This document shows, piece by piece, positions 27,403 to 32,395 of a DNA stretch of 64,000 nt. Below the pieces are notes generated by a model that made no database searches, was not told the DNA's origin, and saw nothing but the letters and a program-made list of their open reading frames with translations. Location: positions 1 to 64,000 of IMG/VR virus record IMGVR_UViG_3300027907_000002, one strand, 5' to 3'. This DNA comes from a virus. Numbering within the stretch: the stretch's first letter is position 1; the number at the start of each line of letters is the position of its first letter. Both the position numbers and the translations under genes were made by a program.

Positions 27403-27473
27403 GGGAGCCCCCATCCTCACGAGCATACACTGGAAGGAACTCCCCTTACCTCCCAGACTCAACAAGGGCTCCC
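27403..27473 (-). ncRNA. Structured RNA unit of 71 nt, unknown family
   Basis: GGGAGCCC and GGGCTCCC at the two ends form a perfect 8-bp terminal stem. The interior can form short hairpins (CTT...AAG and CTCGTGAG). No TTCGA T-loop is present. The first G follows TTTAT, as with many other units, and a 10-base spacer separates it from the next unit. Confidence 0.6.
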
Positions 27474-27483
27474 ATAAATTGGC

Positions 27484-27548
27484 GGACCCACAAAAGGCCT
27501 CGATAGTAGACGATCCCCCCAGACCGTCGACTAGGCTAGTGTGGGTCC
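27484..27548 (-). ncRNA. Structured RNA unit of 65 nt, unknown family
   Basis: GGACCCACA pairs with TGTGGGTCC (9 bp). Inside, GACGGTC/GATCGTC (with one G-U) forms a second stem around a run of G. The unit has a rod-like shape, not a cloverleaf. It starts after TTTAT. Confidence 0.6.
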
Positions 27549-27553
27549 ATAAA

Positions 27554-27778
27554 TCAACTATCTTTAGCGCTTAGTACGCCAGCTCGAAGCTTTTTCATAG
27601 CTATGTCGATCGCGATGAAGGCTCCTACTAGAGCGCCTATCGTCTCTAGTTTTTCCTTCACATTCTCTGCCTCATCATCCTCAGCTCCGACATCACTGAC
27701 CATCTCTCGAAAATCACTATTAGCTTTGAGAACTCCCTCTATCGCTGAGAGCATTCTTTCTTTCTGAGTTGGTTTCAT
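27554..27778 (-). CDS. Unrecognised protein, 74 aa
   Basis: Acidic N-terminal half, then a moderately hydrophobic helix (ETIGALVGAFIAIDIAMKKL). GAAAGGA precedes the ATG. It lies between two groups of RNA units. Not recognised. Confidence 0.6.
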   Translation of the reverse strand: MKPTQKERMLSAIEGVLKANSDFREMVSDVGAEDDEAENVKEKLETIGALVGAFIAIDIAMKKLRAGVLSAKDS

Positions 27779-27793
27779 TTGGTTTCCTTTCGT

Positions 27794-27901
27794 TTAGAGA
27801 ACTCCATTTCTAGCTAATGCTACTCCAAGTATTATTCCTAGTAACACTAGAAGAAGCGCGACTATTACTATTACAACGTCTTCGTTTTTCTCGTTATTCA
27901 T
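27794..27901 (-). CDS. Single-span membrane peptide, 35 aa
   Basis: A charged N-terminus (MNNEKNED) and one long span (VVIVIVALLLVLLGIILGVA) with a short end (LARNGVL). The ATG lies three bases after the 3' end of the 181-nt tRNA-like RNA upstream, so translation must depend on the processed message. No strong ribosome site. Confidence 0.52.
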   Translation of the reverse strand: MNNEKNEDVVIVIVALLLVLLGIILGVALARNGVL

Positions 27902-27904
27902 AAG

Positions 27905-28085
27905 GGCCACAGGCAGGATTCGAACCTGCATCTCACAAGAAAGAAACAGTGAGAAGAACGTCTCAACGACTGATCATCTTATTACTCTCAGGCTTATAGG
28001 CTAGCTCCACTCCTGAGCCACTGCTTACTTGCTAGCTTTCCTTTGAGGTCTTACCTTGGCTTATCCTTTAGAAACGACTGTGACC
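27905..28085 (-). ncRNA. Interrupted tRNA-like RNA of 181 nt
   Basis: The ends pair as an 8-bp stem (GGTCACAG with CTGTGGCC, one G-U). A canonical T arm, GCAGG-TTCGAAT-CCTGC, sits just before the 3' strand, and a hairpin TCTCAC...GTGAGA precedes it. The remaining 120 bases contain a D-arm-like element (GCTC-AGGAGTG-GAGC) but no readable anticodon arm. It could be a tRNA with an intron, or a tmRNA-like or other hybrid RNA. I found no group I intron core or tag reading frame. Confidence 0.6.
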
Positions 28086-28096
28086 ATAAAAGGGTA

Positions 28097-28174
28097 GGGC
28101 GCACTAGGGTACCGTCTCGCGTCAAGTCATGTACTTGAATATAGTCAGAGCCTAACCACGAAAGTGTTGCGCCC
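28097..28174 (-). ncRNA. Structured RNA unit of 78 nt, unknown family
   Basis: GGGCGCA/TGCGCCC forms a 7-bp terminal stem. Inside are hairpins CACTTTCGTG and TCAAG-TACATGA-CTTGA, the second with a 7-base loop like an anticodon arm but with A where tRNAs have U33. No T loop is present. Leader TTTAT, spacer 10 bases. Confidence 0.58.
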
Positions 28175-28184
28175 ATAAAGGGAA

Positions 28185-28290
28185 GGGGTGCTGAGTCACA
28201 GTAGACAATTACACGCTCTCACCTACTGCTACTAATCAGAACAGCGTCCTGTTCTCACTACCACCGTGTCGTGATAGATCCAGCTACCCC
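28185..28290 (-). ncRNA. Structured RNA unit of 106 nt, three-armed
   Basis: The ends pair as GGGGT(A)GCTG with CAGCACCCC (9 bp and one bulge). Inside there are three hairpins in order: CTATCAC/GTGGTAG, AGAACAG-GACG-CTGTTCT, and CAGTAG/CTACTG. The outline is cloverleaf-like but no conserved tRNA bases are seen. Confidence 0.6.
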
Positions 28291-28300
28291 ATAACTTGAA

Positions 28301-28373
28301 GGGACCGATCCGGCCTTACCCTATTACTCTCGAAAGACGCTATGGCGGGGTGACTCCGACGATCTTTGGTCCC
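28301..28373 (-). ncRNA. Structured RNA unit of 73 nt, unknown family
   Basis: GGGACC/GGTCCC closes the unit, extended by GATC/GATC with a 3-base bulge. Inside, ACCC...GGGT encloses TCT-TTCG-AGA. Size matches a tRNA, but there is no T arm. It begins after TTAT. Confidence 0.56.
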
Positions 28374-30906: not shown

Positions 30907-30983
30907 CTCTTCTCCCTCCTTCGATCTCTTATGATCTTCTTGCTCAGCTTGTGAACGTATTTTTTGAGCTTCTTTCTATCCAT
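30882..30983 (-). CDS. Possible basic micropeptide, 33 aa
   Basis: Reads MDRKKLKKYVHKLSKKII, very basic, and overlaps the start of the next gene by 25 bases. No ribosome site precedes the ATG. The reading frame overlaps the strong ribosome site of the 188-aa gene, so it may be a leader or a chance frame. Confidence 0.35.
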   Translation of the reverse strand: MDRKKLKKYVHKLSKKIIRDRRREKRCQNKPQS

Positions 30984-30991
30984 TTTGTTAC

Positions 30992-31087
30992 TCAGCGTAA
31001 CTCCCATAGAGCTGGGGCTATTACAAAGAACCCCAGCAAAAGACAAGCTATTAGTATAAGCCAGTCCAATTTATCCCACTTTCTCAC
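30992..31087 (-). CDS. Single-span membrane peptide with GTG start, 31 aa
   Basis: GTG start with CAGGAG six bases upstream. Reads MRKWDKLDWLILIACLLLG, one span, with a short end (ALWELR). It is one of several single-span micropeptides in 27-32 kb. The GTG overlaps the TGA of the previous gene (GTGA). Confidence 0.58.
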   Translation of the reverse strand: MRKWDKLDWLILIACLLLGFFVIAPALWELR

Positions 31088-31260
31088 TTGAATCTCCTGG
31101 TAAAGGGCTCGATTTTGGTCTTGCCACATCTACTGCATTCGTAAAGGGCTAGATCAGTCCGAGATCTCCTTCTACGGGAATCTGCGTCTGAAATGGTTCT
31201 TTTCCAGTTCCAACTAAACCCCAGAAGGTTGCATATTACAAGGTGAAAAAGCCATCTCAT
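31084..31260 (-). CDS. Small protein with CxxC, 58 aa
   Basis: Reads MRWLFHLVICNLLGFSWNW, then a basic region and CSRCGKTK. It has a hydrophobic N-terminal stretch and a possible metal knuckle. GGAGAG precedes the ATG. Confidence 0.58.
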   Translation of the reverse strand: MRWLFHLVICNLLGFSWNWKRTISDADSRRRRSRTDLALYECSRCGKTKIEPFTRRFK

Positions 31261-31269
31261 AATCTCTCC

Positions 31270-31371
31270 TTAATAGCGAAAGAACCCCACTATGTCGAGT
31301 AACATCCAGACTAGCAGGGTAACAATCGCCCAAATAACAACGCGGGTGAGTGACTTGTTTTTGTTAGTCAC
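31270..31371 (-). CDS. Single-span membrane peptide with GTG start, 33 aa
   Basis: Reads MTNKNKSLTRVVIWAIVTLL, one membrane span, then a short aromatic end (IVGFFRY). The GTG lies within the end of the upstream gene (8-base overlap). No clear ribosome site, so translation probably follows the upstream gene. Confidence 0.5.
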   Translation of the reverse strand: MTNKNKSLTRVVIWAIVTLLVWMLLDIVGFFRY

Positions 31372-31831
31372 AGTTACAGGTAGCTATGTACCAACCATTC
31401 TTTAAGAGAGCCAGGGCCTCGGACTGGACGCTAGAGAGTTCTAGTCCGTGGTCAGCCAGAGTTGCTATCAAGGCAGGGGTGTTATAGTCATGGTCACACC
31501 CCAGAAGGCTCTCTAGCTGTTGACCTAGCTTTTTGTCCTGGATGGGTATCACAAATCCCTTGGTCTTGAAGTGATAGCATCCCGTGCATCCATACTGATG
31601 AAATATGGGATACCCTGAGCTACTAGGAATTATCAAGTAAGCATCAGGATGGTAAAGAAATCCGTCATCTCCTAAGAACATCATATCTTGAAAGAGAAAG
31701 AATTCTCCTCCTTGTGTCATCTTCTCGAACACGAAAGGGCTCACTTGGCCCGCGATGAACTTCAGTTGGTCATACTCATCTATCATATGGCGAAGTCTAT
31801 CCTTTCTGTGACGGTAAGGCTCTCGATCCAT
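31364..31831 (-). CDS. Unrecognised protein with CxxC motifs, 155 aa
   Basis: Basic N-terminus (REPYRHRKDRLRHM), a hydrophobic aromatic centre (VFEKMTQGGEFFLFQDMMF), CTGC and a C-terminal CNCD. Could bind a metal. It overlaps the gene upstream by 49 bases. Not recognised. Confidence 0.58.
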   Translation of the reverse strand: MDREPYRHRKDRLRHMIDEYDQLKFIAGQVSPFVFEKMTQGGEFFLFQDMMFLGDDGFLYHPDAYLIIPSSSGYPIFHQYGCTGCYHFKTKGFVIPIQDKKLGQQLESLLGCDHDYNTPALIATLADHGLELSSVQSEALALLKNGWYIATCNCD

Positions 31832-32145
31832 TGCCTAACTAGGGCCACTCTGGCCACTATCTTATCTCTTAGGACCTCCATCGAATCTGATTGAACATAT
31901 ATTGGTCCATCAAACTCTATGCTTTTAGTATGAGGTCCTTGATTGGGATTCACCTTATACGATATAAGCGCGCTGCAAGTGAAGATAGTTCCCTCACCTT
32001 CGAACTTCGCGCCAGTTAGGGCCTCACTTATGCTCTTTCGTCCCTCGCTAGTATGTAGCTTATGAACTTGAGAGCTACCCACTACAGCTATTACTTCGGC
32101 CTCCTTGCGGCCCTTGCGAATTCTTTCTATAGATATTTTCGTCAT
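31783..32145 (-). CDS. Unrecognised protein, 120 aa
   Basis: Mixed alpha/beta, with EVIAVVGSSQVHKLH near the N-terminus and repeated strands. GGAGG precedes the ATG. It is the first protein gene after the structured RNA units at 32165-32395 in transcription order. Confidence 0.6.
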   Translation of the reverse strand: MTKISIERIRKGRKEAEVIAVVGSSQVHKLHTSEGRKSISEALTGAKFEGEGTIFTCSALISYKVNPNQGPHTKSIEFDGPIYVQSDSMEVLRDKIVARVALVRQWIESLTVTERIDFAI

Positions 32146-32164
32146 TTAGTCCTCCTCAAAGGGA

Positions 32165-32255
32165 GGAGAGCCCTTAGCGACCCTAGCGAGCTCTAGGACC
32201 GAAAGGTAATCCGAGCTCAGCCAGGAGACCTATAGCAGTAGGTCTAGGGCTCTCC
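32165..32255 (-). ncRNA. Structured RNA unit of 91 nt, three-way junction
   Basis: GGAGAGCCCT pairs with AGGGCTCTCC (10 bp). Inside are AGACCTA...TAGGTCT and GAGCTC...GAGCTC enclosing GGA...TCC. The length matches a type II tRNA, but neither a T loop nor an anticodon loop of normal form is present. Confidence 0.6.
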
Positions 32256-32262
32256 AATTGGT

Positions 32263-32321
32263 GAGGGCCTATCTCAGGGAGTACTCACTCGGTTATAAAC
32301 CCTGGGATACGATTGGCCCTC
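32263..32321 (-). ncRNA. Structured RNA unit of 59 nt, unknown family
   Basis: GAGGGCC/GGCCCTC (7 bp) closes a rod containing CAGGG/CCCTG. It follows the leader TTTAT and has a 7-base spacer to the 91-nt unit. Confidence 0.57.
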
Positions 32322-32331
32322 ATAAATGGGA

Positions 32332-32395
32332 GGGAGTCTTTTCCACCCCAATCTCAGATGAAATGGTGAGCCACTGAGATATGGCTCTGACTCCC
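32332..32395 (-). ncRNA. Structured RNA unit of 64 nt, unknown family
   Basis: GGGAGTC/GACTCCC (7 bp) closes two competing hairpins: GAGCC/GGCTC and ATCTCAG/CTGAGAT. It is the first of the three units in this cluster in transcription order. A hairpin at 32411-32442 precedes it. Confidence 0.57.

What the first reader, a model, noticed from the sequence alone, without database searches (positions are those of the whole stretch)
27403..32395. Array of structured RNA units packed end to end, mixed with real tRNAs
More than a dozen minus-strand segments, most of 54-106 nt, each begin and end with perfectly or nearly perfectly complementary sequences (6-11 bp): 27403-27473, 27484-27548, 28097-28174, 28185-28290, 28301-28373, 28646-28707, 28714-28813, 28873-28949, 29026-29102, 32165-32255, 32263-32321, 32332-32395, plus tRNA-like and true tRNA genes. 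Spacers inside the groups are 1-11 bases. Many units start with G right after TTAT or TTTAT, as if processed at a common site. Most lack a T loop and a normal anticodon loop, so they are not ordinary tRNAs. The tiling with tRNA-Asn and tRNA-Tyr suggests one polycistronic precursor processed by the tRNA machinery. I know no named RNA family with this arrangement.
Basis: partly seen in the sequence, partly recalled or inferred. Interest (0 to 1): 0.92.

Follow-up and report, generated by a model that had tools for sequence, protein, structure and literature searches.

The report
Phage array of tRNA-ended structured RNAs
A bacterial virus carries a tightly packed row of at least a dozen small folded RNAs, mixed with real tRNA genes and several bearing tRNA-style ends, and its relatives carry similar but mostly unrelated sets, which points to a little-known, fast-changing store of non-coding RNAs made through the tRNA-processing route.

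Summary
All 12 listed minus-strand segments are closed end to end. Thirteen tight units occur in 1.41 kb against 1.9 in shuffles, with 7 near-abutting pairs against 0.02; mean folding z is -3.3 against -0.4 for controls. Rfam finds only tRNAs. Three relatives (61-69% terminase identity) carry the same kind of array with almost no unit-level homology, and some of their units covary. Best reading: a rapidly changing set of end-closed small RNAs, 5'-matured by host RNase P and co-produced with tRNAs. The product's role is unproven; decoys or ligands for host RNA-binding or defence proteins is my guess. Closest known: T4 rnaC/rnaD (function unknown) and phage YrlA Y RNAs. Circularly permuted tRNA-like loci in relatives, which I first took for permuted tRNAs, look YrlA-like; the window's units do not match YrlA. 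Novelty: new variant of a known kind.

The parts
32332..32395 (-). End-closed unit GGGAGTC..GACTCCC, followed by TCCC; two internal hairpins whose loops contain complementary ATCTCAG / CTGAGAT (possible kissing interaction)
   Evidence: z -3.6
32263..32321 (-). End-closed unit TTAT|GAGGGCC..GGCCCTC followed by encoded ACCA (32259-32262)
32165..32255 (-). End-closed unit GGAGAGCCCT..AGGGCTCTCC (10 bp), followed by TCCC
   Evidence: z -4.9
29105..29183 (-). tRNA-Tyr (GTA), marginal score
29026..29102 (-). End-closed unit between tRNA-Tyr and tRNA-Asn, GAGAGATCCAC..GTGGATCTCTC (11 bp)
   Evidence: z -4.5
28950..29023 (-). tRNA-Asn (GTT), no encoded CCA
28873..28949 (-). End-closed unit GAAGCTCC..GGAGCTTC
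   Evidence: z -1.8
28815..28868 (-). tRNA-like minihelix: acceptor + T arm, no anticodon arm (sub-threshold tRNA match, 21 bits)
28714..28813 (-). End-closed unit AGGCCAAACGA..TCGTTTGGCCT (11 bp)
   Evidence: z -3.4
28646..28707 (-). End-closed unit GGCCGCGAA..TTCGCGGCC (9 bp)
   Evidence: z -3.8
28584..28637 (-). TTAT|GGCAGGGT..GCCCTGCC followed by encoded ACCA (28580-28583); hairpin in the T-arm position without a canonical T loop
28301..28373 (-). TTAT|GGGACC..GGTCCC; shares CGGAGTCACC..GGTAAGGCCGG with G002 46146-46208 (the only window unit with a recognisable homologue)
28185..28290 (-). TTAT|GGGGTAGC..GCACCCC end-closed unit
   Evidence: z -3.3
28097..28174 (-). TTAT|GGGCGCA..TGCGCCC, followed by TACC
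27905..28085 (-). TTAT|GGTCACAG..CTGTGGCC: acceptor + canonical T arm with about 125 nt in place of D and anticodon arms (T4 rnaC-like anatomy)
27484..27548 (-). TTAT|GGACCCACA..TGTGGGTCC followed by encoded GCCA (27480-27483)
   Evidence: z -4.2
27403..27473 (-). TTAT|GGGAGCCCTTGT..ATGGGGGCTCCC followed by TCCC
27062..27115 (-). tRNA-like minihelix: acceptor + T arm, no anticodon arm (sub-threshold tRNA-clan and mascRNA matches)
   Evidence: z -4.2

Best explanation
The locus makes a set of small (54-181 nt) structured non-coding RNAs, each closed by a helix between its own two ends, tiled with a few tRNAs and small ORFs on one strand of a phage genome related to Acidobacteriota (Tunturiibacter) phages. 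Shown in sequence: end closure, tiling, folding stability above chance, the recurrent TTAT|G start, excess N-CCA after the closing helix, and the same anatomy in three related phages with almost wholly different units. Inferred from known RNase P biochemistry: host RNase P cuts at U|G to make the 5' end, with the encoded (R)CC(A) standing in for the missing T arm as recognition element; AU-rich spacers are removed and the closed, stable RNAs accumulate with the phage tRNAs. Guess: because the ends are tRNA-like, decoding parts are absent and the repertoire turns over between close relatives, the RNAs most likely act as decoys or ligands for host RNA-binding proteins (tRNA-directed defence nucleases, RNA chaperones, the translation machinery). 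Rough odds: real ncRNA array about 0.9; RNase P-type maturation about 0.65; decoy/ligand role about 0.3.
For: Tiling and stability beyond chance. N-CCA at 11 of 34 non-T-arm units starting T|G, chosen without looking at what follows, against background 0.015 (P 1.7e-12). In G002, 9 of the 12 T|G..stem-NCCA matches on the array strand of the whole record lie in its array blocks, and 3 of 6 in the window. Pseudoknot RNAs are RNase P substrates if they have a 3' RCCA, and U is preferred at -1 (PMC12710915). Same architecture in G002, G004 and G006. Compensatory changes with no broken pairs in relatives' families: A 4, C 7. T4 makes RNAC and RNAD of unknown function from its tRNA cluster (PMC9697503).
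Against: No expression or end-mapping data. Only 3 of the window's TTAT|G units carry an exact NCCA; others have TCCC, TACC, TTCC or TTCA. Most units lying between tRNAs have no CCA. Window units have almost no homologues, so covariation supports them only indirectly. No target or defence system was identified, so the decoy role is inference.
Confidence: 0.6

Rival explanations
1. The units are Y RNAs (Ro60/Rsr ligands): RNAs whose two ends form a long stem, as in YrlA, bound by a host or phage TROVE protein.
For: Relatives G002 and G004 carry end-closed units with an internal circularly permuted tRNA-like domain, the layout of YrlA; Rfam YrlA gives weak matches there (21.8 bits in L044; 25.2 bits in L043) and 32-59 bits at similar loci of named phages, some related loci lying beside TROVE genes.
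Against: Permissive Rfam search of the window array finds no YrlA match; no permuted tRNA in the window; no TROVE protein in the window's phage or its relatives; TTAT|G..NCCA ends suit RNase P rather than a Y stem.
Confidence: 0.15
2. Decayed tRNA genes: remnants of a larger tRNA cluster keeping acceptor stems by chance or recent loss.
For: Tiled with true tRNAs; three or four units retain an acceptor + T arm.
Against: Perfect 7-11 bp closing helices and z about -3.3 are not expected under decay; most units have no T-loop or anticodon-loop trace; encoded CCA is present in non-tRNA units but generally absent from the tRNAs.
Confidence: 0.1
3. Processing insulators: the units are spacers that keep neighbouring tRNAs folded and separable, without function as free RNAs.
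For: In G004 units alternate with tRNAs at 3-4 nt spacing; 29026-29102 sits between two tRNAs.
Against: Several blocks hold no tRNA (window 27403-27548 and 32165-32395; G002 49652-49906), and units there have their own N-CCA ends.
Confidence: 0.12
4. Antisense regulatory sRNAs acting on host or phage mRNAs.
For: Size and number fit; no direct test was made here.
Against: Ends sequestered in strong helices; no shared exposed seed noticed; not tested against a host transcriptome.
Confidence: 0.13

Closest known systems
Bacteriophage T4 rnaC and rnaD (species 1 and 2 stable RNAs)
   Same: Small RNAs of unknown function abutting a phage tRNA cluster, 6 nt apart; rnaC ends in a T arm like window 27905-28085; rnaD ends in CACC followed by A and an AATTAT spacer, close to the N-CCA-ATTTAT spacer here.
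   Different: Two RNAs only, versus at least 16 units here; T4 rnaD shows no end-closing helix and folds no better than shuffles (z -0.83); most units here have no T arm.
YrlA-type bacterial/phage Y RNAs (Rfam RF02553)
   Same: Ends joined in an outer stem; tRNA mimicry; found in phages (PMC7765460, PMC7824862); YrlA-like units sit in relatives' arrays.
   Different: No YrlA match in the window, no permuted tRNA-like domain, no TROVE protein in the phage record.
RNase P model and non-tRNA substrates (hairpins, pseudoknots with 3' RCCA)
   Same: U at -1, G at +1, helix, 3' RCCA (PMC12710915).
   Different: Those are engineered or single cellular RNAs, not a viral array; cleavage here is untested.
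Phage tRNA arrays
   Same: Genomic arrangement and mixture with tRNAs.
   Different: Most members are not tRNAs.

Membership tests
tRNA (RF00005) | Cloverleaf with T arm, D arm, anticodon arm scoring over 29 bits | tested here: not met
   Only 28950-29023 reaches the cut-off in the whole-window scan; 29105-29183 scores 31.1 in the regional scan. The 12 listed units give no match at E<=5.
T4 rnaC/rnaD-like phage RNAs | Small stable RNA co-located with a phage tRNA cluster | tested here: inconclusive
   Co-location with tRNAs is shown; whether the RNAs exist and are stable in vivo is not testable here.
T4 rnaC/rnaD-like phage RNAs | Sequence or structure homology to rnaC/rnaD | tested here: inconclusive
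   Distant blastn of the locus listed only tRNA-type matches among the top 20 of 198 records. 27905-28085 shares the acceptor + T arm + long insert layout with rnaC; the others do not.
YrlA Y RNA (RF02553) | Match to the covariance model / permuted tRNA-like domain | tested here: not met
   (E<=5, permissive filters) no match in 26800-33000; no permuted tRNA in the window.
YrlA Y RNA (RF02553) | Cognate TROVE/Ro protein | tested here: inconclusive
   None in G000-G008, but records may be incomplete and the host could supply it.
tmRNA / permuted tmRNA | Match to tmRNA models, tag reading frame | tested here: not met
   No tmRNA in the window by ARAGORN or Rfam.
Type III antitoxin (ToxI) arrays | Tandem near-identical pseudoknot repeats | tested here: not met
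   No significant similarity between different non-tRNA window units.
RNase P substrate | U(-1)/G(+1) with a 3' RCC(A) or T stem, and cleavage at +1 | tested here: inconclusive
   Sequence determinants enriched; cleavage itself not testable with these tools.

The most novel reading that the evidence does not exclude
The TTAT|G..NCCA units are an undescribed class of phage RNA: hypervariable, individually folded, end-closed RNAs that use a tRNA-like 3' CCA instead of a T arm to be matured by host RNase P, forming a phage-specific repertoire that antagonises host RNA-targeting defences or other RNA-binding proteins.
Probability: 0.3. Interest if true: 0.85.

Novelty: new variant of a known kind. 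Interest (0 to 1): 0.62.

Why it matters
Phage tRNA clusters are read as tRNA supplies. Here most of the cluster is something else, invisible to tRNA finders and Rfam, and replaced almost completely between related phages. If these RNAs are made, they form a large unannotated class of phage non-coding RNA, show how RNAs without a T arm can use the tRNA maturation route, and give a concrete way into the open question of what T4 RNA C and D do. The junctions are short and easy to test with purified RNase P.

Tried and rejected
1) Loose chain search for tiled units: random sequence does as well; replaced by strict criteria. 2) Circularly permuted tRNA genes: I found T arm / acceptor / spacer / acceptor / D arm loci in G002, G004, G005 and in unrelated phage contigs, with covariation and no match in 84,980 prokaryote genomes for a stricter pattern. 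I first took them for permuted tRNAs new to phages; Rfam YrlA matches and neighbouring TROVE genes in named phages show they are better read as YrlA-type Y RNAs, a known class. 3) RNA ligase for joining halves: only G006 has one, so not a general part. 4) Self-cleaving ribozymes: no Rfam match. 5) Homologues of the array by DNA: none beyond tRNAs. 6) Promoter/terminator scan: no excess over shuffles. 7) Alignment A5 contains one wrongly indexed row and was not used.
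Full report
What the window is. The window lies in a 70.75 kb IMG/VR virus record. Its terminase (31% over the alignment) and major capsid protein (34%) are closest among named phages to Tunturiibacter phage Tunturi_1 and Tunturi_2, phages of an Acidobacteriota host (host phylum from my own knowledge). A capsid-alignment scan brought in much closer relatives, G001-G006 (capsid 78-84% by tblastn; terminase 61-69% for G002, G004 and G006) and more distant ones, G007-G008.

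The observation. All 12 intervals are as described: each starts and ends with complementary sequence and most fold stably. I tested this in three ways. Strict closing helices: 13 units in 1.41 kb against 1.9 in shuffles, and 7 near-abutting pairs against 0.02. Folding z: mean -3.3 against -0.36 for control segments. The array holds the highest-ranking 640-nt tiles of the window on either strand. A looser definition gives chains in random sequence as well, so the strength of the stems carries the argument. Rfam assigns only tRNA-Asn at gathering in the whole-window scan, tRNA-Tyr marginally in the regional scan, and three sub-threshold acceptor + T arm fragments.

Anatomy. Four kinds of unit occur on the minus strand. 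(a) tRNAs: Asn and a marginal Tyr. (b) Acceptor + T arm RNAs without decoding arms: 27062-27115, 28815-28868, and 27905-28085, in which about 125 nt replace the D and anticodon arms. (c) Units that begin right after TTAT with G: 27403, 27484, 28097, 28185, 28301, 28584 and 32263. (d) Units lying within a few nt of a neighbouring tRNA or unit, such as 29026-29102. In class (c) three are followed exactly by N-CCA (27484, 28584, 32263) and others by near forms such as TCCC. The units fill gaps between small co-directional ORFs, so the array is interrupted by protein genes and is two groups rather than one.

The tRNA-like ends. I listed, in the array blocks of the window and three relatives, every start of the form T|G with its best closing helix, without looking at what follows. 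Of 34 such units without a T arm, 11 are followed by N-CCA; the background frequency of CCA is 0.015 (P 1.7e-12). One of the 11, G002 46434-46590, overlaps a tRNA match with a large insertion, and a few rows are overlapping alternatives, so the P value is approximate. In G002 nine of ten class (c)-type units carry NCCA when the one-base-shifted closing at 46219-46301 and the alternative closing at 43944 are counted (my count). The canonical tRNAs I looked at in the same arrays do not encode CCA (sequence). RNase P can cut RNAs without a T arm if a 3' RCCA is present to pair with the RNase P RNA, and prefers U at -1; this was shown for a pseudoknot RNA (PMC12710915). I therefore infer that these RNAs are matured by RNase P and that the CCA replaces the T arm as a recognition element. 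Cleavage itself is not shown.

Relatives. G002, G004 and G006 each have blocks of the same design. In G004 ncRNA units with 7-12 bp closing helices alternate with tRNAs at 3-4 nt spacing (62226-61692). In G002 three tandem class (c) paralogues (49652, 49728, 49819) share CGTGACTTRACCCC or a shortened form of it and differ by compensatory changes in the closing stem. Yet the array of the window has no DNA-level counterpart, and an all-against-all comparison of units finds only one non-tRNA match to the window: 28301-28373 with G002 46146-46208 (score 37 against a shuffled maximum of 34.5), sharing CGGAGTCACC..GGTAAGGCCGG with different closing stems. A scan of the viral collection for that motif pair returned only the G002 contig. 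Unit families shared between relatives covary: family A (G002/G004) 4 and family C (G002/G006) 7 compensatory pairs, none broken. Each is a comparison of two sequences with a structure predicted from the same alignment, so these are indications only.

A wrong turn, corrected. In G002, G004 and G005 some units contain a circularly permuted tRNA-like core: T arm, 3' acceptor strand, a short spacer ending T|G, 5' acceptor strand, D arm. ARAGORN recognises a tRNA only after the halves are rejoined. The same layout turned up in unrelated phage contigs. The literature held lists permuted tRNA genes only in algae and one archaeon (PMC3978253). Before claiming novelty I looked at named phages with similar loci. 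In BONAISHI, KP13-16, KP13-26, S-CRM01, phiM12 and ValKK3 the locus matches Rfam YrlA at 32-59 bits, below the gathering score, and two crAss-like phages with related sequence carry a TROVE (Ro60) gene next door. YrlA Y RNAs, with an outer stem and an internal tRNA mimic, are known and known in phages (PMC7765460, PMC7824862). So these units are best read as YrlA-like, although in G002/G004 the model match is weak and no TROVE protein was found in those records. The window itself has no such unit.

How it most likely works. Shown: a set of strongly folded, end-closed units; tRNA-style termini in part of them; the same design but different content in relatives. Inferred: co-transcription with tRNAs, 5' maturation by RNase P, accumulation as stable RNAs. 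Guess: because the decoding parts are missing and the repertoire turns over quickly, these RNAs act on host proteins, most plausibly as decoys or ligands for tRNA-directed nucleases or other RNA-binding proteins. Rivals are Y RNAs, decayed tRNAs, processing insulators and antisense sRNAs; each has evidence against it listed in its field.

Relation to known things. The closest functional precedent is T4, whose tRNA cluster ends with rnaD and rnaC, described as RNAs of yet unknown function (PMC9697503). T4 rnaC has an acceptor-like end and a T arm; rnaD ends in CACC followed by A and an AATTAT spacer, but rnaD does not fold better than shuffles. The window array differs in number, in end closure and in lacking T arms. 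I file it as a new variant of that kind, not as a member of YrlA, tmRNA, ToxI or tRNA.

Limits. No expression data exist for this phage, its host is unknown, and the relatives are too few for per-unit covariance models. Only open-access papers were searched, so earlier descriptions in subscription journals may have been missed.

Noticed in passing
G002 about 22055-22200 and 22378-22540 (L068 2055-2540, +); G004 about 11340-11505 and 11740-11915 (L073, -): Units with a circularly permuted tRNA-like core (rejoined anticodons Leu UAG, Val CAC, Trp CCA with loop CUCCAAA; one G004 unit has lost the anticodon arm), outer closing stems and YTACATG near the 5' flank in most; compensatory changes between the two phages. 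Probably YrlA-like Y RNAs.
   Followed up: partly
L107 (Klebsiella phage KP13-16), L111 (KP13-26), L115 (Vibrio phage BONAISHI), L110 (Synechococcus phage S-CRM01), L109 (Sinorhizobium phage phiM12), L113 (Vibrio phage ValKK3): YrlA-like RNAs at 32-59 bits, below the Rfam gathering score and not annotated in the records; two copies in tandem in KP13-26 and BONAISHI.
   Followed up: partly
L094 4500-6560 (-): Contig with a permuted alpha-type tmRNA (RF01849/RF04321) followed by several end-closed units, one a T arm joined to a D arm without an acceptor stem, and a permuted tRNA-like unit with encoded ACCA just upstream of an ORF that looked Ro60-like to me; the PF05731 search did not ring there.
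   Followed up: no
L046 5797-6810 (-) (G006): T4 Rnl1-type RNA ligase (PF09511, 57.9 bits) directly upstream of the tRNA/ncRNA array of G006; absent from the other relatives and the window.
   Followed up: yes
window 20115-21762 (-): Adjacent ORFs resembling a Prok-JAB isopeptidase (PF14464, above cut-off) and a ThiF/E1-like enzyme (sub-threshold): a possible ubiquitin-like conjugation pair in a phage.
   Followed up: no
window 245-970 (-): ORF with a vWA-like DRSGSMS (MIDAS-type) motif seen by eye, without a TROVE domain.
   Followed up: no
G002 46434-46591 (+); L108 409-552; L113 209-322 and 333-454: tRNA matches carrying large insertions (114-158 nt in total), in relatives and in crAss001 and ValKK3; not explained.
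   Followed up: no
L002 15116-15193 (+): Lone tRNA-like element with a T arm and no recognised anticodon, in an 83 kb contig that shares the 188-aa ORF of the array region.
   Followed up: no
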